Shown here one piece after another: positions 307 through 13,129 of a stretch of 16,040 bases of DNA (the stretch's first letter is position 1; every line of letters starts with the position of its first letter). The notes under the pieces were generated by a model. The model saw nothing but the letters and a program-made list of their open reading frames with translations. It ran no database searches and was not told the origin of the DNA. Location: positions 1 through 16,040 of the forward strand of contig NZ_JOIR01000071.1 of NCBI RefSeq assembly GCF_000720115.1, in the 5' to 3' direction. The stretch is from Streptomyces sp. NRRL F-2580 (GTDB lineage Bacteria > Actinomycetota > Actinomycetes > Streptomycetales > Streptomycetaceae). The position numbers and the translations under genes are program-made.

Positions 307-777
307 CTAGCGGCGGCGGCCCCAGGTCTCGGTGTCGACGGTGCGGCCGCGGTCGTCGCGCAGGGTGGCGGTGTCGCCGTGGTTGTCCCAGACGTAGTTG
401 CGGCGGTCCTGGAAGAGGTCGGTGCGGGTGTCGCGGCCGTTGCCGGTGTGGATGCGGATGGTGGCGCGGCCGCCGATGCGGACGTTGTCGAAGCGGTAGC
501 GGTTTCCGTCACTGTTGCGCAGGGTCCAGCCGCGGAGGTTGATGGCGTCGCGGGTGGTGTTGGTGATCTCCACCCATTCCGCGTTCAGGGAGCGGTTGGA
601 GCGGTCGTCGTGTCCGGGGCTGTCGGCCTGGACCCGGCTGATCTCGACCCGCGGGTGCCGCTGGTGGTGACGGTCGCCGTCGTGCGCGGCCGCCGGCAGC
701 GCGGCGGCCGAAACGATGGCGCCGGCGGCCAGGACGGTGGCGGCGATACGGCGTGCGGAGGAAGAAGCAGAAGACAT
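307..777 (-). CDS. Secreted lamin tail domain (LTD) protein
   Basis: 156 residues. ATG start at 777 with GAGGGAG about 8 bases upstream. Residues 1-31 form a Sec signal peptide (Arg pair, Ala/Val-rich core, AAA before HD at the predicted cleavage). Residues about 43-152 match a single lamin tail domain, an immunoglobulin-like beta fold: an NAEWVEITNTT strand, an LRGWTL strand, an IGGRATIRIHTGNG stretch and VWDNHGDTATLRD near the end are the family's usual landmarks. Bacterial LTDs are often fused to nucleases or found as lone secreted proteins. Here there is no enzyme domain, so it is probably a small extracellular binding or structural protein. A His/Asp-rich linker (HDGDRHHQRH) follows the signal peptide. 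It stands alone, with a terminator downstream and about 440 bases of non-coding DNA upstream. Family call firm; function unknown. Confidence 0.88.
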   Translation of the reverse strand: MSSASSSARRIAATVLAAGAIVSAAALPAAAHDGDRHHQRHPRVEISRVQADSPGHDDRSNRSLNAEWVEITNTTRDAINLRGWTLRNSDGNRYRFDNVRIGGRATIRIHTGNGRDTRTDLFQDRRNYVWDNHGDTATLRDDRGRTVDTETWGRRR

Positions 778-2826: not shown

Positions 2827-3321
2827 GTGAAGCTCAACATGAAGTCTCGTTTTGTCATGGCTGCGGTTGCTGCTGCTGCGACGACGCTGGTGATGACCCC
2901 GTCGGCTTACGCCGACGGCCAGCTGCCCAACACGGGTTATGAGAACCAGTGGAGCCCGGAGGTGTGCAAGGACCCGGGTAATTCGGGGTTCAAGTTCACG
3001 CTGTACTTCAACTCCAACTTCAAGAATTCTTACCGGAACATCGGCTACAGCGTCTGGGATTTCGCCGATGAGCGCATGGGTGGGGCACCTCAGGCGGGCC
3101 TGCAGCCTTTGCGGTACTGCGTGTTCGGGGTCAGCTCACCCTGGCCGGGGTCTGGTCAGAACATCAAGAACAATGCTGCTTCGGCAACAAACCGCCATTC
3201 CTCGTATGTGGCCGACGTGTACTTCAACCGCGGCTACAAGGGTGCAGTCGATGACGTCGCCTGGGGCCGCAACCTGAATTACACGTACAACAACAACGCG
3301 TCGTTCGCCTGGCGAGGCTGA
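2827..3321 (+). CDS. Secreted peptidase inhibitor family I36-like protein
   Basis: 164 residues. GTG start at 2827 with AAAGG about 6 bases upstream; the in-frame ATG at 2839 has no site of its own. Residues 1-29 are a Sec signal peptide (Lys/Arg start, Ala/Val core, AYA before DG). The mature part has two cysteines (C47, C98), probably one disulfide. The two halves carry related strand motifs: LYFNSNFKNSYRNIG (about 59-73) and VYFNRGYKGAVDDVAWG (131-147). The second half adds GSGQNIKNNAASATN and ends NYTYNNNASFAW. This layout is typical of Streptomyces proteins labelled peptidase inhibitor family I36, a beta/gamma-crystallin-like fold related to the metalloproteinase inhibitor SMPI. Inhibitor activity is not shown by the sequence. 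Codon use is richer in T-ending codons (GCT, GTT) than in neighbouring genes. It has its own promoter region and terminator. Confidence 0.75.
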   Translation: MKLNMKSRFVMAAVAAAATTLVMTPSAYADGQLPNTGYENQWSPEVCKDPGNSGFKFTLYFNSNFKNSYRNIGYSVWDFADERMGGAPQAGLQPLRYCVFGVSSPWPGSGQNIKNNAASATNRHSSYVADVYFNRGYKGAVDDVAWGRNLNYTYNNNASFAWRG

Positions 3322-3370
3322 CACCAGAGCACTCTCGCTGCGCGGGGTTACTGATCCCCCCGATTTCACA

Positions 3371-3411
3371 TGGCCCCGCAGGTCTCTCACAGGGCGAGCT
3401 CTGCGGGGCCA
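3371..3411 (+). terminator. Terminator after the I36-like gene
   Basis: TGGCCCCGCAG (3371-3381) pairs perfectly with CTGCGGGGCCA (3401-3411), an 11-bp stem with a 19-base loop, 50 bases beyond the stop of the I36-like gene and 66 bases before the lipoprotein start. It makes the secreted protein and the ABC operon separate transcription units. The promoter of the operon must then lie in 3412-3477 or overlap the hairpin; I could not place it. Confidence 0.75.
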
Positions 3412-3477
3412 GCGGGGCGCCCTTCCCTTCGCCCAATCAGCCGAACACAGCCCCGTAGTCCGAGAACGGTAGACCCC

Positions 3478-4362
3478 ATGCGTTCCTTGATCCCTTCCCC
3501 GGCGAGGTCGGCAACGATCCTCACCCTCGTCGTCTTCGGTGCCGTCGCCGGCTGCTCGCCGTCGTCCACATCTGGCGGGTCCCAGCCGCTTCGCTCGGCT
3601 CCTGCTCGTGCCTTCAACGAGGCGGATCCCGCGACGTGGACGCTGCCGATGGAGGGCTACCTTCCGTCCGACGACGAGCGGAGTCAGGTGGCCAAGGCGA
3701 AGAACCTTCTCATCGGCGATTGCATGAAGAAGGCCGGGTACGGCCAGTGGCGCCCGGCACCTGAGCTCCCGAAGATGGGCCCCAAGACGCTGACCGACTG
3801 GCGTTACGGCATCCACGACGGGGAACTGGCCAAGCGGCGCGGATACAAGCCGGACGAGGCCGAGCAGGCTGCCTACGACGCAGCGGTGAACGTGGGCGCG
3901 GTCGACGGGACGTCCGCAGAGGGACCGGACGGCAAGGCGCTCCAAGTGTGCATCGGCGAAGCGCGTACCAAGCTCGGCGGAAACCCGGCCACGTACGGCG
4001 AGGAGGCACAGAAGCTGGGGAACGAGGCCTTTGCCCGGTCCAAGGAGGATTTGAAGGTGGTCGCCGCGTTCCAGGCGTGGTCGTCGTGCATGAAGGAGCA
4101 GGGCTACGACTACAAGCAGCCGTTGGACGCGAGTGACGATCAGCGTTTCGGCGGCCGGGACGTGACTGCGGAGGAGATCGCCACGGCCACGGCGGACATA
4201 TCGTGCCGCAACCGTACCCATGTGGCCAAGATCTGGTGGGAGGCCGAGTCCAAGCTGCAGACCGCCGCGCTCGAGAAGAACGCCGAGACGCTGGAGAAGG
4301 CCCGCAAGGATCTCGACGCTTCGGTCAAAGCCGTGGCCGACGTACTCTCCGGCGAGAAGTAG
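3478..4362 (+). CDS. Four-cysteine lipoprotein of the ABC transporter operon
   Basis: 294 residues from ATG at 3478; the frame is open from 3370, but that extension runs through the terminator. The lipobox VAGC puts the lipidated cysteine at C26, after a short positive N-region and hydrophobic core, so it should be anchored on the outer face of the membrane. The mature part has four more cysteines: C82, C158, C204 and C243. Two of them sit in near-identical motifs, CMKKAGYGQW (82) and CMKEQGYDYK (204), each followed by another lone cysteine. This suggests an internal duplication with two disulfides. The region is mostly charged helix (runs of Lys/Glu/Ala). No enzyme motif. Its stop lies 12 bases before the adaptor start, so it is probably co-transcribed with the transporter and may be its extracytoplasmic partner. 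Family name not recognised. Confidence 0.85.
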   Translation: MRSLIPSPARSATILTLVVFGAVAGCSPSSTSGGSQPLRSAPARAFNEADPATWTLPMEGYLPSDDERSQVAKAKNLLIGDCMKKAGYGQWRPAPELPKMGPKTLTDWRYGIHDGELAKRRGYKPDEAEQAAYDAAVNVGAVDGTSAEGPDGKALQVCIGEARTKLGGNPATYGEEAQKLGNEAFARSKEDLKVVAAFQAWSSCMKEQGYDYKQPLDASDDQRFGGRDVTAEEIATATADISCRNRTHVAKIWWEAESKLQTAALEKNAETLEKARKDLDASVKAVADVLSGEK

Positions 4363-4374
4363 GAGCACCGGTCC

Positions 4375-5718
4375 ATGACGGAACCGACGGCTATGGCTGA
4401 GGCCCGCACACCGGGCGATGAAGCATCTTCACACAGGCGGGTGGCCCCGCCACGCGGGGGTCTGGTGCGCCGCCGCCGGGTCTTGATCGGTGTCGTCGCG
4501 GGAACCGTGGCCCTGACCGGGGTGGGAGCAGGCGCTGCGACCGTGCTGAAGTCGCCGGCGCAGGTCGCGGCGGAGACCGCGCCTCCTCCTGCCGACGTGT
4601 TGACGGCACCGGTGGAGAAGAGGGTGCTGTCCGCCTCGCTGGTCACCCGCGGCAAGGTCGCCGCGTCGCAGCGGATCGACGTCCTGTCGGCCGGGTTGAG
4701 TGGCGGGGACACCATCCGTGCGGTGGTGACCAAGGTCAAGGTGAACCCCGGCGACACGGTGAAGCCGGGCTCGGTCCTCGCGGAGGTCGCCGGCCGGCCG
4801 GTGCTGGCTCTGCGCGGTTCGCTGCCGGCCTACAGGAACCTGACTGCTGGCGTCGTCGGGCAGGACGTGGTGCAGCTGCAGAAGGCCCTAGCGGAACTCG
4901 GCTACCGTCGAGGCAGCGATCCCTCGGGCACCTTCGGACCCGGCACGCAGCATGCGGTCAAGTCCCTCTACGAGGCTGCCGGCTACACCGCCCCCACCAC
5001 CGCCGGAACGAAAACGGACTTGGCGGGTAAGCCGGGTGCCGACAAGCCGGGCGAACCGCCGACCAGCGGTACTCCCTCCGGTGTCACGGCCGCTACTTCG
5101 ACGACCGTGGTACTGCCGGCATTCGAGACCGTGTTCGTATCAGACGGGCCCGTGCGGGTCGAGTCGGTCGATGCGGTGGTGGGTGCCACGGCCGCTGAGA
5201 AGCTGATGACGATCACAGCCGGGGCACTGGGCGTCGACGGGGCGCTGGAGAGCTACCAGAAGGAATCGGTGCGGCCCGGGCAGAAGGTGGACATCTTCGC
5301 TGACAGGAGTGGTGGACGGGCCGTGGGTACGGTGGCGTCCGTGGGACCCGCGCCGGCCCCGTCGGGCAAGGAAGCCGGCGCAGCCGAAGCGGCGCAGCGG
5401 TTTCAGGTGAAGATCACTCCCGACCAGCCGCTGCCCGCCGAATTCGCGGGCCAGGACGTCCGGCTGACCATCAATGCCGCATCTTCCGACGGCGCCGTTC
5501 TGGTGGTCCCGACCGCAGCCGTCTCTTCCCAAGCGGACGGCCGTACGACACTCATCGTCGTCACCAACGGTGGGAAGCAGACCCGCGTAGAGATCCGCAC
5601 TGGAATGAGCGGGGACGGGTACGTGGAAGTCACGCCCGTATCAGGCGCCCTCTCGTCCGGTGACCGAGTCGTCCTCGGCGCGGGACGGGCTCCTGCACCG
5701 AGCGGCGGCAAGCGGTGA
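4375..5718 (+). CDS. ABC exporter membrane-fusion adaptor with peptidoglycan-binding domain
   Basis: 447 residues from ATG at 4375, GGAG about 8 bases upstream. Cytosolic Arg-rich tail (1-35), one membrane segment at about 36-58, then an extracytoplasmic part. Residues about 95-146 look like the biotinyl-lipoyl-like hairpin of HlyD/MacA adaptors (VTKVKVNPGDTVKPGSVLAEVAGRP). Residues about 155-205 are a PG_binding_1 repeat (VVGQDVVQLQKALAELGY ... GTFGPGTQHAVKSLY), which normally binds cell-wall peptidoglycan. A Thr/Pro/Gly linker (205-240) leads to beta-barrel and membrane-proximal domains (to about 440) with VVPTAAVSSQADGRTTLIVV typical of the family. In a monoderm there is no outer-membrane channel, so this protein probably couples the ABC permease to the wall. 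Its stop overlaps the start of the ATPase gene by 4 bases. Confidence 0.9.
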   Translation: MTEPTAMAEARTPGDEASSHRRVAPPRGGLVRRRRVLIGVVAGTVALTGVGAGAATVLKSPAQVAAETAPPPADVLTAPVEKRVLSASLVTRGKVAASQRIDVLSAGLSGGDTIRAVVTKVKVNPGDTVKPGSVLAEVAGRPVLALRGSLPAYRNLTAGVVGQDVVQLQKALAELGYRRGSDPSGTFGPGTQHAVKSLYEAAGYTAPTTAGTKTDLAGKPGADKPGEPPTSGTPSGVTAATSTTVVLPAFETVFVSDGPVRVESVDAVVGATAAEKLMTITAGALGVDGALESYQKESVRPGQKVDIFADRSGGRAVGTVASVGPAPAPSGKEAGAAEAAQRFQVKITPDQPLPAEFAGQDVRLTINAASSDGAVLVVPTAAVSSQADGRTTLIVVTNGGKQTRVEIRTGMSGDGYVEVTPVSGALSSGDRVVLGAGRAPAPSGGKR

Positions 5719-6422
5719 TCCAAGACCGGACGCCCCCTGTGATCCAGTTCGACGCAGTCGGGCTGACCTATCCCGGGCCCCCGCCCGTGCCCGCCCTGCT
5801 CCCCTGTGATCTGACGGTTAGGCGTGGCGAGTACGTCACCATCGTGGGGCCGTCCGGATCGGGGAAGTCCACCTTCCTCAACATCGCCGGCCTGCTGGAC
5901 ACGCCTACCCACGGCACCTACCTGCTGGACGGCATCGACACCACCACCATCAAGGACAAGGAACGCACCACCCTGCGCGGGTCCCGCATCGGGTTCGTCT
6001 TTCAGGCCTTCCACCTCCTGGCGCACCGCAGCGCCCGTGAGAACGTCGAGCTCGCCATGATCTACCAGCGGGTTCCCCGCTCTCAGCGGCGCGCCCGCGC
6101 CCGCGCCGCGCTGATCCGCGTGGGCCTGGGCCACCGGCTGGACGCCCTGCCCACCCGGCTCTCCGGCGGCGAGCGCCAAAGGGTTGCCATCGCCCGAGCG
6201 CTCGTCACCGAGCCCTCTCTCCTGCTGTGCGACGAACCGACCGGAAACCTTGACACCGCCACGGCGGAGTCCGTCCTCGAGCTCCTGGACCAACTCCACC
6301 GTGACGGCGCGACGATCGTTGCCATTACACATGACCCCCAGGTCGCCGCCCGTGGACAGCGCAGTGTCTCGATCCGCGACGGCCGCCTCACCGACAGGCC
6401 TGCCGAGCAGGTGACCGCATGA
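5715..6422 (+). CDS. MacB/LolD-type ABC transporter ATP-binding protein
   Basis: 235 residues from GTG at 5715, in a GTGA overlap with the adaptor stop, which implies translational coupling; GTG at 5739 is a possible alternative start. All ATPase motifs are intact: Walker A GPSGSGKST (45-53), Q-loop Q97 in FVFQAFHLL, signature LSGGERQRVAIARAL (149-163), Walker B LLLCDEPTGNLD (169-180), and switch histidine H206 in ITHD. The DEPTGNLD form and the short 235-residue length are typical of the LolD/MacB/FtsE-like (type VII, mechanotransmission) subfamily, which powers conformational work on the outer side of the membrane rather than conventional substrate translocation. Partner of the following permease, with which it overlaps by 4 bases. 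Confidence 0.95.
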   Translation: MIQDRTPPVIQFDAVGLTYPGPPPVPALLPCDLTVRRGEYVTIVGPSGSGKSTFLNIAGLLDTPTHGTYLLDGIDTTTIKDKERTTLRGSRIGFVFQAFHLLAHRSARENVELAMIYQRVPRSQRRARARAALIRVGLGHRLDALPTRLSGGERQRVAIARALVTEPSLLLCDEPTGNLDTATAESVLELLDQLHRDGATIVAITHDPQVAARGQRSVSIRDGRLTDRPAEQVTA

Positions 6423-7678
6423 CTGGACGCCGCCGCGGCCGTCCGCCTCGCAAGCACGACACGAAGGTCCGCCGTTCAGGACTTGCGGCACACGATCTGC
6501 TCGCCGAGGCCCTCGCCGGCGTACTCCAACGCCCGGCGCGCTCGGCCCTCACCGCGCTGGGCACCGTCCTGGGAGTCGGCGCCTTCATCGCCGTTCTCGG
6601 CCTCACGGGCACCGCCGCTTCCCAGATCGACGGCCGGTTCAGCCGACTGACCGCGACCGAAGTGACCGTTCAGGACACAGGCGGAAGCGACAGTGCCCAC
6701 GTTCCGCTGTCCTTCACCCCGGACGCCGACCAGCGCATCGCAGCCTTGAACGGAGTCACGGCGGGCGGGGTCTTCTGGAAAGTGCGTCTGCGCACCGACC
6801 AGAACGTCAGCACCTCGCTGGTGTCAGCCGACGGGAGCGCCACGCGCCCGCAGGTGATGGCAGCATCGCCTGGAGCACTTCAAGCCACAGGTCCTCACAT
6901 GGCACAGGGAAAGACGTTCGACGACTTCCACGACCGTGAACACCAACAGGTGGCTGTCATCGGCGCGGCGACCGCCAATCGGCTCGGCATCACCGATGTT
7001 CAAAGCCAGCCGGCCATCTTCATCGGCACCACCCCGTTCACCGTCATCGGCATCCTCAAGGACGTCGACCGCAGGCCCGACTTGCTGATGTCGGTCCTCA
7101 TCCCACGCTCCACCGCCGAGCAGATCTGGGGCCCACCCGGCGACGACCGCGCAACCATGCTCATCTCCACCCGCCTCGGCGCCGCCACCCAGATCGCAGA
7201 CGAGGCCGCCCTCGCCCTGCGCCCGGACCACCCGGAGTACTTCAAGGCCCTGCCGCCGCCCGACCCCAAGACCCTGAGGTCCGGCGTCGGCGGAGACCTG
7301 AGTTCTCTCTTTCTCCTCCTCGCCGCCGTATGCCTCGTCATCGGGGCGGTCGGCATCGCGAACACCACGCTGGTCGCCGTGATGGAAAGGACCGGCGAAA
7401 TCGGTCTGCGCCGAGCGCTCGGCGCACGAGGACGGCACATCACCCTGCAGTTCCTCTCCGAATCCACCGCCCTCGGACTCATCGGCGGCCTGATCGGCAC
7501 GTCCATCGGGACTGCAGTCGTCGTCGCGGTTTCCGCGGCCCGCCAGTGGACCCCGGTTCTGGACCCGATCACACAAGCCGCCGCCCCTGTCTTGGGCCTG
7601 GCCACTGGCCTCCTTGCGGGCCTCTACCCCGCCTGGCGGGCCTCCCGAATCCCACCGGCCGAGGCTCTGCGCCGCTAG
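6419..7678 (+). CDS. MacB/FtsX-type ABC transporter permease
   Basis: 419 residues; ATG at 6419 overlaps the ATPase stop as ATGA. Arg/Lys-rich tail, first membrane segment at about 43-64, a large extracytoplasmic MacB-type periplasmic core domain (about 66-290), then three membrane segments at about 297-320, 351-373 and 388-404. The coupling motif EIGLRRALGAR (327-337) after the second segment, and the PAWRASRIPPAEALR end, are hallmarks of the MacB/LolC/FtsX family. With the PG-binding adaptor and lipoprotein this makes a complete tripartite system. The closest described roles for such systems are export of peptides or small toxins from the outer leaflet, or control of wall hydrolases as in FtsEX; the substrate cannot be read from the sequence. 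Confidence 0.94.
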   Translation: MTGRRRGRPPRKHDTKVRRSGLAAHDLLAEALAGVLQRPARSALTALGTVLGVGAFIAVLGLTGTAASQIDGRFSRLTATEVTVQDTGGSDSAHVPLSFTPDADQRIAALNGVTAGGVFWKVRLRTDQNVSTSLVSADGSATRPQVMAASPGALQATGPHMAQGKTFDDFHDREHQQVAVIGAATANRLGITDVQSQPAIFIGTTPFTVIGILKDVDRRPDLLMSVLIPRSTAEQIWGPPGDDRATMLISTRLGAATQIADEAALALRPDHPEYFKALPPPDPKTLRSGVGGDLSSLFLLLAAVCLVIGAVGIANTTLVAVMERTGEIGLRRALGARGRHITLQFLSESTALGLIGGLIGTSIGTAVVVAVSAARQWTPVLDPITQAAAPVLGLATGLLAGLYPAWRASRIPPAEALRR

Positions 7679-7891: not shown

Positions 7892-10800
7892 TTGAGATTC
7901 CGTAGGAGATCCCGGACAGTCTCAGCGGCAGTGGCCGCTGGTGCGCTGTTCGCCGGACTGCTCCAGGTCACGGCCTGGGCCGATGAGAAGCCGCGACCAG
8001 CACCTGCTCCCGCGAAGCCGTTCGAAGTGCCTGCCAAGGACCGCGCCAAGGTTCTTGGCAAGGACTGGCAGAAGTCGGCGGACATAGCCTGGACGACCAG
8101 TTCCGATGCGCAGGGCTTCCACATCCTGACTGCTCGCGAAAGCGCCGGCTACTCGTGGAGCACGCTCGCTTCGCTGTCCGAACCCGGTTTCGACACCGAC
8201 TCGTGGATCGGCAACGCCTGCGTCACCGGGTCGGGCAAGCGAGTTGTGGTCGTATACGCGCCGCGAACCTTTACGAACACGCCGAAGCTGATGGCGCGCG
8301 GCGCGTTCGCCGCGGTTGTGGAGCTGGAGACCGGGCACGTCACCAAGCTGCCCGTGCAGGTCTCCCTGTCCTACTACAACCCCGGCTGCGGGACCGGCGA
8401 AGAGGCCGTCCTCACACAGTCCGGTGGCGAGGACAAAGCCTCGACCCGCCTGTTCAAGCTGGACACGGTCACTGCAACGCTCTCCCAGCCCATCGAAACC
8501 ACGGGGCAGGTCACCTCATCGGTACCGGCTTCCGACGGGTCTGTGGTCGGAGCCGCGGGCGCGCAAATCGTCAAGGTCGACGTCAAGGGTCACAAGACGC
8601 CCGTCGTGGCCACCGACACGGTGCCCTACCGCCTGACCCCTGACGCCGACGGCGGCCTCGTCTTCCTCGATCCGAGTCCCGCTAAGGCCGGTGCACAGGC
8701 GGCACGGGTCAAGCGCGTCGAAGCCACCCAGATCAAAAGTCCGGGCGCAAGGAAGACCGGAGCTGTTCTGCTGGCGGAGGGGCCTCTGGCCGATACCGGT
8801 CTGACGCGAAACGCCGGCATGGTCTACCTGACGGGCAAGGCCAAGCCGGTCTCCGGCAAGAAACTGCCCAAGACCGTGCGGCACCTCAACAGCACGCCCA
8901 AGGACGCCAAGATCTCCACCCGGGGCGAGGCTGTCTTGACAGGAACCACCTGGGCAGACGGCCAAGGCGCCCTTGTATACGGTGCGGACCCGTCCGCCGG
9001 GCGCCCCGTCCAAGTCCAGATGACAGTCCTCGACAGCGGAGACGCGACCGCGTTCACCGTGAGCCCGGACCAGCGGACCAGCCCGCGGATCCAAGAAGGA
9101 CGCGAACGCACCCCCGCGCTGAAGGCTCCCAAGGCCGACGGCGCGACGGTACCGAAGGCGCAGCCCAAGTCGGCAAGCCCGACCTCCGAGGCCCCCGGAG
9201 CGCAGGCTCTCGCCGCCGGAACGCCCACCGAGGTCGTCGAATCCGAGCGTGTGTGCTCCGTTCCGCGCAACGACCCCCGCAATCAGGCGATGCAGCCCAA
9301 GCCCCGCCAGGTTGAATGGGCCGTCAACCAGGCCATCCGCGGAAATCTCAACGCGCACATCAGCCGTCCCGCGAACTGGAAGAACCTGGGCATGCCGGCC
9401 TACCAGCCGCAGACCCTGTTCCCCTACCCGTCCGATCTGCTTGGTGGGGCCACGGTGCCCGCACAGGTGATGCTCGGCATCACCGCCCAGGAATCAAACA
9501 TGTGGCAGGCCTCGCGCGTCGCCGTCCCCGGTGTCACGGCCAATCCACTCATCGGCAACTATTACGGCATCGACCTCTACGACGGCAACCCACTCAACGA
9601 CTGGGACGTCAACTGGGCCGAAGCCGACTGCGGCTACGGCATCACACAGGTGACCGACCACATGCGTCTGGCCGGACGCGAAGACGGCAAGGGCGGTGCT
9701 GCCTGGGACTACCAGAAGCAGCGCGCCGTCGCGCTCGACTACACCGTCAATGTGGCGGCCGGTCTGCAGATACTCGCGGATAAGTGGCGACAGACCAGTA
9801 GCGCAGGCTTGAAGGTCAACAACGGCAACTCGGCCAAGCTGGAGAACTGGACCTTCGCCCTGTGGGCCTACAACTCGGGCTTCTACCCTGACAAGGGAGA
9901 CAGCTCGCCCTGGGGTCTGGGCTGGGCGAACAACCCCGCCAACCCCGAATGGGACGCCGGCCGGTCCCCCTTCATGGAAGACTCGGCAGGCAACGAGGAA
10001 GCCGCGGATGCTGCGCATCCTCAGCACTGGCCGTACCAGGAGAAGGTCCTCGGCTTCGCGGCACACCCGCCGGCCTTCCTCGAGTCCCCGGGCAAGATGG
10101 TCCCCGCCTTCATCGCAGCCTCGTGGAACGGCAAAGAGGGCGGAGCCAGCATCGAGGGCTCAGCAGTCCAGAACCGTGCCAAGGCCAAGCCCCCGGAGGA
10201 CCTCTTCTGCACCCCTCTCGACAACAGCTGCGACCCGAGCAAGATCGGTGACGGCGCCTCGAACGAGACGGGTTCAGGCCCCTGCATACGTGACGTGGAC
10301 TACAAGTGCTGGTGGCACAAGTCCGTGCAGTGGAAGAACGACTGCAACTTCTCGTGCGGAAACGACTTCACCCGCTTCCCTGTCAGCTGGGCCGAGGAAG
10401 CCGACGGCACTGCCTACCCGCCGAACTGCACCACCAGCGGCCTGCCCGCCGGAGCCCTCATAGTCGACGATGTAGCGCAGGGGACTCCTGTCGTCCGATC
10501 AGGATGCCCCAACAGTTCCTGGACCAACCAGGGCACCTTCACTTTCGATTTCGGAAAGGGAGAAACGGCCTGCTCGCTGTGCTACGTGAAATGGCCGGCA
10601 AAGGTCGACCTTCACCAGCTCGGTGCCGGTTTCGGCGGTCACTTCTACTTCGGCCACACCCGGAAGGCTGATGCCAAGGGCGAGCGCCTGAAGATCACCG
10701 GCACATGGAAGCTGAATACGCCGTTGGCCCAACGAGACGCCCGGGTCTGGGTGCACCTGCCTGACCACGGCGCCCAGACCAAGCAGGCGAAGTACGAGAT

Positions 10801-12418
10801 CAAGACAGCTGAAGGCTGGGTCTCCAAGCAGGTCTCCCAGCCCGGAAGCGGCAACCGGTGGGTGGACATCGGCATCTACCGCTTCGAAGGCAACCCTGAG
10901 GTCCGCCTGTCGTCGATCACTGGTGACGGGACCGGCGACCAGGACATTGCCTTCGATGCAGTGGCATTCCAGGGGGGCGACTTCTCTCAGATTCCGGAGA
11001 TCCGCTTCCCCGACCCGGACCCCAACGCACCGGAACCTGAGGCCGTCGAACCGCCGGTAATCATTCCCGGCAACTTCCTCGACCTGAACGCGTCGGCGAA
11101 CCGCAGCGCACCCGCGGCGAAGTCTTCGCTGTCGAGCCCCAGCGGAATCGGTCCCAAGGCTTCAAAGGAGTGCCGGACGGTCAACGAGGCCAAGCAGGAG
11201 GTGATCTGCATGGGCCCGGCCCCCATCACTCCGGAACCGGCCGACAAGCAGTGGGGGCGGAAGGGAGCCGAGGCTCCGGCGGCTGACGCCAGCGCCAGGG
11301 CAGCCGGCAGTGCAGGTGACACCGTTGCATGCTCGCTGGCCCAAGCCTCTGTCTCCTACAAGAGGACGCATGCGTGCATGACCGGTCAGCTCATCCTTGA
11401 GCGGATCACTGCCGGTCGACCCACAGGCCAGGCTATATGGGATTACCGACATGAAATCCAGCTCAACCTCAAGACTGCGGTGATCCAGCAGACTGTCTCT
11501 TTTGACATGAAATCGACTGCCGGTATCAAGGCTGTCAAGCTCGACATGGACTTCGACTGCCTCGGTGCCTGCCAGAGTGAACCTACGCAGTGGACGAACA
11601 GCCAGACCTGGCAAACCGGCGATCGGCACACGCTCAGTGGGTTCAAGGAGATGAAGTGGACCGGAACCTCCGGCCACAGTGACGTTTACCCCAGCTGGAC
11701 TTTCAAGGGGACGATGGACAGCGGCGCCGCCACTCCCATCAAGCGCGACAAATCAGAGCTCAACATTCGCTGCGACCTTGAAGCGAAGAACACCGACGGA
11801 AAGCCCGGCTGTGTGTTCTCGCGCTACATCCCCACCTATGTCGTCGGCACGGCGGAAAACCCGTCGGCGGCGGCGTTCTACTGGATAATCCAGCAGAAGC
11901 TGCCCTCTCACCCTGGGAGCCGCGAGCACAAGAAGCCGCTCACCTATCTGGCAGACTCGAAGCAGGCGGACTACAACCGCAACAAAGTGGTCTGCAACAA
12001 GTACGGCGATGGCAAGTTCCTGAAGCATCCGGACTCGGGAGTGACCAAGCCCGGTGGGCCGAGTTGTGACGAGTACCCGTTTGCAGCTTCCTACCAGAGT
12101 GGTGCCATGCCGGTGGCCACTGGTGGTGGTGGCCTGACACTCGGCACGGGCTGCCTCCAGCTGTACGCGAAGAAGCCCGCGGCTGGCGAGCAATGGACGC
12201 TGAAGGAGGACACCCGCTACGCGCGTGCCAACACGTGGAAGGAGCCTTGCGGGCGGGCTTCTCTGCCCGGGGACGAGAACAGTGGTGCAGCCAACCGGAT
12301 CGGCCTCCACTTCGTTCCCAACAACCGCATCATCGACAAGGACGCCTACTATCTGCTGGCCCCTGGATTCGAGGAATGCACTGATCTAACGAAGATCTGC
12401 TGGGTTCGCACCCGCTAG
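7892..12418 (+). CDS. Giant secreted multidomain protein: lysozyme/SLT-like + golvesin-like + NucA/NucB nuclease
   Basis: 1508 residues, TTG start with AGGAG 5 bases upstream (7882-7886). Signal peptide 1-30 (RFRRRSR, hydrophobic core, AWA before DEK), no transmembrane anchor seen. Residues about 45-400 are a strand-rich, propeller-like region; 400-450 is an Ala/Pro/Lys linker. Residues about 475-750 resemble a lysozyme/soluble-lytic-transglycosylase fold: QVMLGITAQESNMWQ with candidate catalytic E534, DCGYGITQV (579-587) matching the family's GxxQ/xGYGIxQ block, and WTFALWAYNSG. A Cys-rich stretch (about 775-865) is followed by a golvesin-like beta domain (about 868-1030; FTFDFGKG ... DARVWVHLPDHG ... 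DIAFDAVAF). Residues about 1340-1500 are a NucA/NucB deoxyribonuclease domain, with SCDEYPFAAS (1391-1400, D1393/E1394), GCLQLY, and NRIGLHF ... NRIIDKDAYYLL. This implies secreted cleavage of both wall and DNA. Catalytic assignments are inferred from motifs, not tested. Confidence 0.88.
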   Translation: MRFRRRSRTVSAAVAAGALFAGLLQVTAWADEKPRPAPAPAKPFEVPAKDRAKVLGKDWQKSADIAWTTSSDAQGFHILTARESAGYSWSTLASLSEPGFDTDSWIGNACVTGSGKRVVVVYAPRTFTNTPKLMARGAFAAVVELETGHVTKLPVQVSLSYYNPGCGTGEEAVLTQSGGEDKASTRLFKLDTVTATLSQPIETTGQVTSSVPASDGSVVGAAGAQIVKVDVKGHKTPVVATDTVPYRLTPDADGGLVFLDPSPAKAGAQAARVKRVEATQIKSPGARKTGAVLLAEGPLADTGLTRNAGMVYLTGKAKPVSGKKLPKTVRHLNSTPKDAKISTRGEAVLTGTTWADGQGALVYGADPSAGRPVQVQMTVLDSGDATAFTVSPDQRTSPRIQEGRERTPALKAPKADGATVPKAQPKSASPTSEAPGAQALAAGTPTEVVESERVCSVPRNDPRNQAMQPKPRQVEWAVNQAIRGNLNAHISRPANWKNLGMPAYQPQTLFPYPSDLLGGATVPAQVMLGITAQESNMWQASRVAVPGVTANPLIGNYYGIDLYDGNPLNDWDVNWAEADCGYGITQVTDHMRLAGREDGKGGAAWDYQKQRAVALDYTVNVAAGLQILADKWRQTSSAGLKVNNGNSAKLENWTFALWAYNSGFYPDKGDSSPWGLGWANNPANPEWDAGRSPFMEDSAGNEEAADAAHPQHWPYQEKVLGFAAHPPAFLESPGKMVPAFIAASWNGKEGGASIEGSAVQNRAKAKPPEDLFCTPLDNSCDPSKIGDGASNETGSGPCIRDVDYKCWWHKSVQWKNDCNFSCGNDFTRFPVSWAEEADGTAYPPNCTTSGLPAGALIVDDVAQGTPVVRSGCPNSSWTNQGTFTFDFGKGETACSLCYVKWPAKVDLHQLGAGFGGHFYFGHTRKADAKGERLKITGTWKLNTPLAQRDARVWVHLPDHGAQTKQAKYEIKTAEGWVSKQVSQPGSGNRWVDIGIYRFEGNPEVRLSSITGDGTGDQDIAFDAVAFQGGDFSQIPEIRFPDPDPNAPEPEAVEPPVIIPGNFLDLNASANRSAPAAKSSLSSPSGIGPKASKECRTVNEAKQEVICMGPAPITPEPADKQWGRKGAEAPAADASARAAGSAGDTVACSLAQASVSYKRTHACMTGQLILERITAGRPTGQAIWDYRHEIQLNLKTAVIQQTVSFDMKSTAGIKAVKLDMDFDCLGACQSEPTQWTNSQTWQTGDRHTLSGFKEMKWTGTSGHSDVYPSWTFKGTMDSGAATPIKRDKSELNIRCDLEAKNTDGKPGCVFSRYIPTYVVGTAENPSAAAFYWIIQQKLPSHPGSREHKKPLTYLADSKQADYNRNKVVCNKYGDGKFLKHPDSGVTKPGGPSCDEYPFAASYQSGAMPVATGGGGLTLGTGCLQLYAKKPAAGEQWTLKEDTRYARANTWKEPCGRASLPGDENSGAANRIGLHFVPNNRIIDKDAYYLLAPGFEECTDLTKICWVRTR

Positions 12419-12469: not shown

Positions 12470-13045
12470 TTATGTGGAAGTGAACGCGAGGGCCGGGAAA
12501 GGATCGCTTCGCAGGGAGGCCCGCGGCAGGTCGACCCCAAAATGCTGCTCCACCAACTTCAGCAGGAGCACCTCGGAGCTTTCTTCGGCGGTCCCTTCCG
12601 GAACGCCGGCCGCAACCAGTCCCGCGGCCACGAGATCGGACGCGAACGTCCGAGGGGTGGACTCGTCGACAACCTCCTGGGCGTCCGACGGTTCGAAGAA
12701 CGCCACGATCTCCCCGGCCACGGCGTGCATGAACCACACTGGGGGCATGCCGCTGTTGAGTACAGCGATGCACTCTGTTCCCATCGATACCCGGCGCGCG
12801 GTCCTGGCTTCCATGCCCTCGGCGCTCCACTGTTCCAGGGAGAACGCCCAATTTCCGCTGGTGCCGAGGCGTGCGACGGGCGCCTTGTCCATGGAGTGCT
12901 CGAATGCCTCGCCCGAGGTCATCGGAGACATCACCGCCTGAGCGTCGTACCCCAGACGGGCAACGAGTTCGTTCACTTCGATCCCACGGACGAGCAACAG
13001 ACAGTAGGCGTCACAGTCCTCCGGCAGCCAGTGAATTCCGTCCAT
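12470..13045 (-). CDS. DUF6461 family protein
   Basis: 191 residues. The frame is open from 13096, but ATG at 13045 has GGAGG 4 bases upstream and gives the family-like start MDGIHWLPEDCDAYCLLLVRG. Other landmarks: ELVARLGYDA, then VARLGTSGNWAFSLEQ, ARTARRVSMGTECIAVLN, VWFMHAVAGEIVAFFEP, and a helical C-terminus ending LVEQHFGVDLPRASLRSDPF. This order (helix with DAYCL, GxWAFSLE strand, GTExxxVL, WFxxAxxGExVxxFEP) fits DUF6461, an actinobacterial family of unknown function. Cytosolic: no signal peptide or membrane segment. It converges on the giant secreted protein, sharing its terminator. A cytosolic small acidic protein beside a multidomain toxin-like gene could be an immunity or regulatory protein, but the convergent orientation argues against simple co-expression, so this remains open. 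Confidence 0.8.
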   Translation of the reverse strand: MDGIHWLPEDCDAYCLLLVRGIEVNELVARLGYDAQAVMSPMTSGEAFEHSMDKAPVARLGTSGNWAFSLEQWSAEGMEARTARRVSMGTECIAVLNSGMPPVWFMHAVAGEIVAFFEPSDAQEVVDESTPRTFASDLVAAGLVAAGVPEGTAEESSEVLLLKLVEQHFGVDLPRASLRSDPFPALAFTST

Positions 13046-13129
13046 GAATCCTCCCGTGTCCTGAGCTTTCAGTGACGTGCCCGATGGCAGGTCCACGGTG
13101 GGGCCAGGGCATCCATTCCCGAACAGATT

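What the first reader, a model, noticed from the sequence alone, without database searches (positions are those of the whole stretch)
7892..12418. One secreted polypeptide that appears to attack both cell wall and DNA
The 1508-residue protein has a signal peptide, a lysozyme/transglycosylase-like domain (candidate catalytic E534, DCGYGITQV at 579-587), a golvesin-like beta domain and a C-terminal NucA/NucB nuclease domain with the SCDEYPFAAS signature. NucA/NucB enzymes are normally small secreted DNases of about 110-140 residues. Putting one at the tip of a large wall-lytic, propeller-bearing protein resembles a polymorphic-toxin or predation-effector layout (carrier domains first, toxic tip last), or a scavenger enzyme for lysed mycelium. 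I do not know of a described function for this exact architecture.
Basis: partly seen in the sequence, partly recalled or inferred. Interest (0 to 1): 0.78.

Follow-up and report, generated by a model that had tools for sequence, protein, structure and literature searches.

The report
Swappable-tip secreted toxin with immunity gene
A bacterium of apparently Streptomyces kind carries a large secreted protein that looks like a modular weapon against other bacteria: a wall-binding, probably wall-cutting body with a DNA-cutting tip that is exchanged for other tips in related strains, and a neighbouring gene that probably protects the producer from its own tip.

Summary
The 1508-aa protein has a signal peptide, a beta-propeller, an SLT/lysozyme-like region with invariant E534, a golvesin/xanthan-lyase-type domain and a NucA/NucB nuclease tip with active-site D1393, E1394 and N1463. 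Residues 1-~1030 are a shared carrier; the rest is swapped among relatives (NucA/NucB, SGNH/GDSL hydrolase, DNase-I-like, RHS, one unknown ~440-aa type). The carrier tree needs 20 tip changes; in sister loci DNA homology stops at the carrier/tip junction and resumes within or about the end of the next gene. Each main tip type has its own kind of neighbour. In 20 of 25 NucA/NucB loci a convergent DUF6461 or SUKH gene lies 51-213 bp downstream, against 1 of 79 other loci, and that one faces a second toxin with a NucA/NucB-like tip. SGNH tips are followed by a small co-directional membrane protein in 30 of 54 loci (28 of 518 control genes). The window's DUF6461 gene (12470-13096, minus) is the only one found in its genome. 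Best reading: an actinobacterial polymorphic toxin-immunity system on a carrier known so far as NocE, of unknown function. The lysozyme fold is weakly supported. Toxicity, immunity and membrane crossing are untested; a growth phenotype of a nocE mutant argues for another or additional role.

The parts
7892..12418 (+). Toxin gene, 1508 aa, TTG start: carrier (about residues 1-1030) plus NucA/NucB tip (about 1031-1508)
7892..7984 (+). N-terminal signal peptide (residues 1-31, by inspection; no predictor run)
   Evidence: translation
8042..9067 (+). Beta-propeller (about residues 51-392)
9299..9991 (+). SLT/lysozyme-like region (residues 470-700), candidate catalytic E534 at 9491-9493
   Evidence: E534, S535, G583, Q586, Y660, N661, G663 identical in 49 of 49; Pfam SLT in 36 of 49, not in the window's own copy
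10445..10981 (+). Golvesin_C / xanthan-lyase C-terminal-like beta domain (residues ~852-1030)
10973..10990 (+). Carrier/tip junction (residues ~1028-1033), where homology to relatives with other tips ends
   Evidence: matches stop at residue 1027; exchange point in L070/L071
11360..11776 (+). Ig-like beta-sandwich that belongs to the tip (residues ~1157-1295)
11849..12415 (+). NucA/NucB DNase domain (residues 1320-1508), D1393/E1394/N1463
   Evidence: the only PF14040 match found in the genome
12434..12465 (.). 13-bp stem between the two convergent genes, possible terminator
   Evidence: 1 found, 0.7 expected by chance
12470..13096 (-). DUF6461 gene, predicted cytosolic immunity protein to the NucA/NucB tip
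   Evidence: Pfam E 3.5e-10; no other copy found in the genome by Pfam profile or by its own sequence; 9 of 25 NucA/NucB loci have a convergent DUF6461 gene 54-213 bp after the toxin
2827..3321 (+). Small secreted protein, weakly I36-like, accessory cassette
   Evidence: E 0.005, below cut-off; same order in L068 and plasmid L147
3370..4362 (+). Lipoprotein, carrier-associated accessory
   Evidence: a relative lies upstream in 19 of 107 loci (window included) against 5 of 107 downstream
4375..5718 (+). HlyD-type adaptor with peptidoglycan-binding domain
   Evidence: Pfam; conserved in L068 and L147
5715..6422 (+). ABC transporter ATPase (MacB/LolD-like)
6419..7678 (+). MacB/FtsX-type permease

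Best explanation
The gene encodes a secreted polymorphic toxin. The carrier (propeller, SLT-like region, golvesin-type domain) is exported through its signal peptide, binds the surface of another actinobacterium and probably nicks its peptidoglycan. The exchangeable NucA/NucB tip then reaches the cytoplasm and cuts DNA. The convergent DUF6461 gene at 12470-13096 makes a soluble cytosolic protein that neutralises the tip in the producer and its kin. Shown here: domain content, conserved active-site residues, tip exchange, and tip-specific neighbour genes. Inferred: binding, wall cutting, membrane crossing, toxicity, and neutralisation.
For: (1) Carrier constant, tip variable: in 121 proteins (query plus the 120 listed of 814 hits) the tips fall into NucA/NucB 72, unknown 37, SGNH 11, one cut short; in 80 genome loci (the best of 252) SGNH 39, NucA/NucB 22, unknown 17, DNase-I-like 2 (Exo_endo_phos by Pfam in one of the two); two further loci carry RHS-type tips (Pfam run on one). 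(2) On a FastTree of 104 carriers, 20 tip changes (minimum 5; shuffled mean 43.3); starred branches force at least 9, 7 and 7 for SGNH, NucA/NucB and unknown. The window's four nearest carriers hold three tip types. (3) Exchange at the junction: L070 and L071 are 93.9% identical in DNA up to position 12869 (last carrier match 12871), then unrelated, then 96% identical again from within the old SUKH gene; L071 has a tip closest to those of L079 and L068, followed by a DUF6461 gene, and keeps the old SUKH gene (shortened at its 3' end). L072 and L070 are 85% identical to about 50 bp past the junction, unrelated over the tip and most of the neighbour gene, and about 90% identical beyond; carrier 84%, tip 34% at protein level. 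(4) Immunity-type neighbours: convergent DUF6461 (9) or SUKH (11) 51-213 bp after 20 of 25 NucA/NucB loci against 1 of 79 others, Fisher p 8e-16; 7 of the 20 had been used to build the profiles. The one exception is a SUKH gene that faces a second carrier frame of 1547 aa whose tip matches NucA/NucB tips. In L047 and L108 a transposase gene (a fragment in L047) lies between toxin and SUKH gene; in L071 one interrupts the tip. Three plasmid loci with NucA/NucB tips all have an annotated SMI1/KNR4 gene at that place. (5) The pair also occurs without this carrier: of five places with the tip outside it, three (L162, L163 remnant, L164) have a convergent DUF6461 gene, two (L165 remnant, L166) do not. 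(6) SGNH loci: small co-directional membrane protein within 150 bp in 30 of 54, against 28 of 518 other genes (p 1e-19) and 4 of 73 secreted-like ones.
Against: No killing or neutralisation data. No dedicated secretion system is linked to most loci. The route of the nuclease across the target membrane is unknown. DUF6461 is a wider family: of 20 other DUF6461 loci fetched from relatives (27 places found), none shows a NucA/NucB tip or this carrier in the flanks held, so only some DUF6461 proteins can be immunity proteins for it. L079 has an intact tip and no such neighbour; L105 has a shortened tip and none. Deleting the SGNH relative nocE in S. clavuligerus lowered growth in each medium tested, and constitutive expression raised it in one (PMC6856088 section 14), which fits a nutritional or developmental role better than a pure weapon. 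For the unknown tips the downstream membrane gene is only weakly enriched (4 of 15, p 0.009). Related loci are not independent samples and genes were called by a simple codon-composition script, so the p-values are optimistic.
Confidence: 0.8

Rival explanations
1. Extracellular recycling enzyme: a large secreted hydrolase that breaks wall and DNA of dead mycelium or competitors for nutrition; the variable C-terminus reflects different nutrients (DNA, lipids or esters).
For: The recognised tip enzymes (NucA/NucB, SGNH, DNase-I-like) are hydrolases; nocE deletion reduced growth and its authors proposed nutrient acquisition (PMC6856088). NucB-type DNases are ordinarily secreted. A 529-aa NucA/NucB protein without this carrier (L166) has no immunity-type neighbour.
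Against: A scavenger DNase needs no soluble partner in the cytosol (inference), yet 20 of 25 loci have one, from two families without detectable relation. RHS tips and exchange of tip together with neighbour gene are toxin hallmarks.
Confidence: 0.12
2. Self-directed developmental lysis: the protein takes down the producer's own old mycelium (programmed death, cannibalism), with the neighbour gene restricting damage to a cell type.
For: The growth effect of nocE deletion; convergent orientation would allow separate timing of the two genes; several paralogues in some genomes.
Against: Patchy presence (a match in 16 of 61 relatives), plasmid copies and tip swapping do not look like a conserved developmental function.
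Confidence: 0.1
3. The carrier is the functional unit (peptidoglycan remodelling) and the tips plus neighbour genes are neutral or selfish passengers.
For: The carrier is more conserved than the tips; forms with an 18-aa tail exist (L059, L064).
Against: Active-site residues are kept in 23 diverse NucA/NucB tips and matched neighbours are kept next to them.
Confidence: 0.05

Closest known systems
NocE (nocardicin and clavulanic-acid-like clusters; SGNH/GDSL C-terminus)
   Same: Same carrier: a database protein named NocE (P0028, SGNH tip) aligns over 68% of the query at 69% identity; SGNH-annotated plasmid proteins align to residue 1027
   Different: Tip is an SGNH/GDSL hydrolase; usual neighbour is a small membrane protein; published work treats it as an extracellular hydrolase of unknown role (PMC6856088, passages and section 14)
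Polymorphic toxin systems (survey of Zhang et al. 2012, PMC3482391, passages read)
   Same: Variable C-terminal toxin, adjacent immunity gene; Tox-NucA is listed there with Imm-SUKH among its immunity families
   Different: Carrier of propeller + SLT-like + golvesin domain not seen in the passages read; export by signal peptide only (the survey also lists T2SS export for Tox-NucA); immunity-type gene convergent; DUF6461 as partner
NucB of Bacillus licheniformis (PMC5758888, passages read)
   Same: D-E pair and Asn of the active site
   Different: NucB is a free enzyme of about 110 residues; here it is the tip of 1508 residues behind an Ig-like domain
Streptomyces umbrella toxins (PMC11062931, passages read)
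   Same: Secreted polymorphic toxins of Streptomyces with downstream immunity genes
   Different: Umbrella toxin uses ALF repeats and a multi-protein lectin particle; no ALF match here
Tde5 with Tdi5a/Tdi5b (PMC13392607, abstract, start of introduction and section 8 read)
   Same: A beta-beta-alpha metal DNase toxin met by unrelated immunity families, one of them widespread in other contexts
   Different: T6SS effector of Pseudomonas; both immunity proteins in one locus

Membership tests
Polymorphic toxin system | Conserved N-terminal part with diverse C-terminal toxin domains | tested here: met
Polymorphic toxin system | Tip-specific immunity-type gene adjacent | tested here: met
   (by family and position; function untested)
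Polymorphic toxin system | Tip and immunity gene exchanged as a cassette, old immunity gene retained | tested here: met
   L070/L071/L072
Polymorphic toxin system | Dedicated export system or trafficking domain | tested here: inconclusive
   Signal peptide only, by inspection; HlyD/ABC/FtsX cassette complete in 3 of 107 loci
Polymorphic toxin system | Toxicity and its neutralisation | not testable with these tools
   -
NucA/NucB DNase (PF14040) | Profile match above curated cut-off | tested here: met
   24.5 vs 23.8 bits
NucA/NucB DNase (PF14040) | Active-site D, E, N | tested here: met
   invariant in 23 against PMC5758888
NucA/NucB DNase (PF14040) | NucB fold | tested here: inconclusive
   tip model confident but structure rows shown are Ig-like domains
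SLT/lysozyme-like transglycosylase (PF01464) | Profile match in the window's protein | tested here: not met
   no match at E 0.1 nor among the genome's SLT matches; 36 of 49 aligned sequences match at E 0.01
SLT/lysozyme-like transglycosylase (PF01464) | Catalytic Glu with G-x-x-Q and Y-N-x-G motifs | tested here: met
   identical in 49 of 49; motif definition recalled
SLT/lysozyme-like transglycosylase (PF01464) | Lysozyme fold | tested here: inconclusive
   low pLDDT around 510-571 of the model; structure rows dominated by the propeller; profile-profile test against 4 SLT proteins of the same genome weak
SUKH immunity superfamily | The window's neighbour is a SUKH protein | tested here: not met
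   it is DUF6461; hhalign of the two sets gives probability 0.5%
RHS toxin | RHS repeats in the window's protein | tested here: not met
   none in window; present in relative L062
Umbrella toxin | ALF repeats | tested here: not met
   no such Pfam match at E 0.1

The most novel reading that the evidence does not exclude
A so far unrecognised class of free, signal-peptide-secreted polymorphic toxins spread through Actinobacteria (the NocE class), in which the delivery body carries its own wall-cutting domain and accepts DNase, ester/lipid hydrolase, DNase-I-like, RHS and unknown tips, and in which the place of the immunity protein (cytosol for NucA/NucB tips, membrane for hydrolase tips) follows the site of action of the tip; DUF6461 contains a new immunity family.
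Probability: 0.6. Interest if true: 0.82.

Novelty: new variant of a known kind. Interest (0 to 1): 0.74.

Why it matters
It would give a function to NocE-type proteins, which sit in or near some beta-lactam gene clusters and have been knocked out without a clear answer, and would add a second kind of secreted polymorphic toxin in Streptomyces beside umbrella particles. It makes a concrete, cheap prediction: the DUF6461 protein next to the tip neutralises a NucA/NucB DNase. It also raises a mechanistic question about how a protein with a probable wall-cutting body but no known injector gets a nuclease into a Gram-positive cell.

Full report
What is there. The finding is real. The ORF 7892-12418 encodes 1508 residues from a TTG codon preceded by AGGAGA. 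Pfam gives Golvesin_C and DNase_NucA_NucB above their cut-offs. The AlphaFold model of residues 31-1033 (mean pLDDT 76) shows a beta-propeller and, at ~852-1030, a domain matching the C-terminal part of a xanthan lyase. Between them lies a partly helical region whose conserved residues follow the SLT order: E534-S535, G583-x-x-Q586, Y660-N661-x-G663, identical in 49 of 49 aligned sequences. Pfam SLT is found in 36 of those 49 at E 0.01, but not in the window's own copy. The model of the tip (mean pLDDT 88) shows an Ig-like sandwich followed by the nuclease region. C1392, D1393, E1394 and N1463 are invariant in 23 tips, matching D93, E94 and N117 of NucB (PMC5758888, passages). The lysozyme fold is probable, not shown: the structural and profile-profile tests were inconclusive.

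Carrier and tip. A protein search returned 814 hits, 120 listed; many cover only about two thirds of the query, and matches of that kind end at residue 1027. The listed 120 plus the query fall into three tip classes: NucA/NucB 72, unknown ~440 aa 37, SGNH/GDSL 11, one cut short. The window's genome has four copies of the carrier; the other three have SGNH tips and each is followed by a 150-153-aa protein with four hydrophobic segments. Among 61 related genomes 16 have a match to the carrier, with 11 matching places in one and 8 in another (some of these are fragments, and in two genomes the only match is a short one) and none in 45. A scan of GTDB representatives found 252 relatives; the 80 kept have SGNH 39, NucA/NucB 22, unknown 17 and a DNase-I-like type 2 (Exo_endo_phos by Pfam in L133). 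Two relatives carry RHS-type tips behind the same carrier (RHS repeats by Pfam in L062), and two end 18 residues after it.

Exchange. After removing six repeats and three loci without a usable tip, 104 loci remained, window included. On their carrier tree (FastTree, 1043 columns) tip type changes at least 20 times. The nearest carriers of the window are L068 (NucA/NucB), L067 and L103 (unknown) and L038 (SGNH). L068 and L067 share 73% of the carrier and no tip similarity. At DNA level L070 and L071 are 93.9% identical up to 12869 (the last carrier match in L070 is at 12871). Beyond that point L071 has a different tip, closest to those of L079 and L068 and interrupted by a transposase gene, then a DUF6461 gene; homology at 96% resumes from within the SUKH gene that in L070 follows the old tip, and L071 keeps that gene in a form shortened at its 3' end. 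L072 against L070 shows 85% identity to about 50 bp past the junction, then a different tip and DUF6461 instead of SUKH, then about 90% identity again from about the far end of the neighbour gene. Tip and neighbour are thus replaced together, and an old immunity-type gene can stay behind.

Neighbours. Directly after the window's gene, convergent and 51 bp away, lies a DUF6461 gene (12470-13096, -). In other NucA/NucB loci the same place holds DUF6461 or SMI1/KNR4 (SUKH-1) genes (two of the three SUKH matches are below Pfam's cut-off). With profiles built from four and three of these, all 104 loci (1.91 Mb) were searched in six frames. Twenty of 25 NucA/NucB loci have one of the two 51-213 bp downstream on the opposite strand (9 DUF6461, 11 SUKH); two more have a SUKH gene behind a transposase gene or fragment (L047, L108); L071 has both further down; L079 and L105 have none. 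Seven of the 20 were members of the profile sets; the other 13 were found by them. Of 79 other loci one scored (L075), and there the SUKH gene faces a second carrier frame on the other strand whose tip matches NucA/NucB tips. Three plasmid loci not in this count have an annotated SMI1/KNR4 gene at that place. Of five places with the tip but without this carrier, L162, L163 (remnant) and L164 have a convergent DUF6461 neighbour; L165 (remnant) and L166 (a more distant 529-aa protein) have none. In the window's genome one DUF6461 and one NucA/NucB place were found, side by side. DUF6461 is not confined to this role: at least 27 places in 19 of 61 genomes; of 20 other loci fetched, none shows this tip or carrier in the flanks held.

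For SGNH tips, 30 of 54 loci with a called downstream gene have a co-directional gene within 150 bp, at most 280 aa, with a hydrophobic segment; the same test on 518 other genes of 250 aa or more in the same loci gives 28 (4 of 73 secreted-like ones); for unknown tips 4 of 15; for NucA/NucB 0 of 21. The SGNH neighbours form several families; the seven scanned had no Pfam match. NucA/NucB tips are thus paired with soluble proteins and SGNH tips often with membrane proteins, as expected if each partner sits where its toxin acts (inference).

Upstream cassette. A small secreted protein, a lipoprotein, a peptidoglycan-binding HlyD-type adaptor, an ABC ATPase and an FtsX/MacB permease precede the toxin. 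The full set is in the same order in L068 and on plasmid L147; a relative of the lipoprotein is upstream in 19 of 107 loci with NucA/NucB, SGNH or unknown tips, against 5 of 107 downstream. It may help export, wall passage or protection; it is not obligatory.

What is known. NocE, named in nocardicin and clavulanic-acid-like clusters, has an SGNH C-terminus; database proteins named NocE match this carrier. Deleting nocE did not affect beta-lactam production but lowered growth (PMC6856088), the main experimental result against a pure-weapon reading. The 2012 survey lists Tox-NucA with Imm-SUKH among its immunity families (PMC3482391 passages). Umbrella toxins are the described secreted polymorphic toxins of Streptomyces that I know of (PMC11062931 passages). 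Unrelated immunity families for one DNase family are known for Tde5 (PMC13392607, abstract and section 8). In the library searched, 'golvesin' with 'Streptomyces' gives 0 papers, 'golvesin' alone 10 (listing), 'DUF6461' 0, 'NocE' with 'nocardicin' 2, 'NocE' with 'SGNH' 12, 10 listed, 'polymorphic toxin' with Streptomyces and NucA 2, and with Streptomyces and immunity since 2018 52, of which I saw a listing of 20. In these I found no description of this carrier as a toxin, but most subscription papers are not held.

Verdict. A polymorphic toxin-immunity locus on an unrecognised carrier class: new variant of a known kind. The system reading is strong; the wall-cutting step is probable; entry, killing and neutralisation are predictions.

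Noticed in passing
window 2827-7678: Conserved cassette (small secreted protein, lipoprotein, HlyD with peptidoglycan-binding domain, ABC ATPase, FtsX permease) upstream of the toxin, complete also in L068 and on a plasmid (L147); relatives of the lipoprotein lie upstream of the carrier with several tip types.
   Followed up: partly
L062, L063: The same carrier fused to RHS-type tips with their own C-terminal ends (Pfam RHS repeats, golvesin and weak SLT checked in L062 only).
   Followed up: partly
tips of P0029, P0066, L067 and others: A ~440-aa tip without a Pfam match in the two scanned (P0029, P0099), in a few loci followed by tiny two- or three-span membrane proteins (56-85 aa): candidate new toxin family.
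   Followed up: partly
L133 12824-13747: DNase-I-like (Exo_endo_phos) tip on the carrier in Micromonospora; a similar tip in L135 (Sphaerisporangium).
   Followed up: partly
L075 13877-19698: Two toxin genes with different tips face each other, with a membrane-type and a SUKH-type gene between them.
   Followed up: yes
L059, L064: Carrier forms that end 18 residues after the golvesin domain.
   Followed up: no
window 307-777 (-): Secreted lamin-tail-domain protein.
   Followed up: no
L150 13079-14307: Pycsar defence genes a few kilobases from an SGNH-tipped carrier on a Streptomyces plasmid.
   Followed up: no
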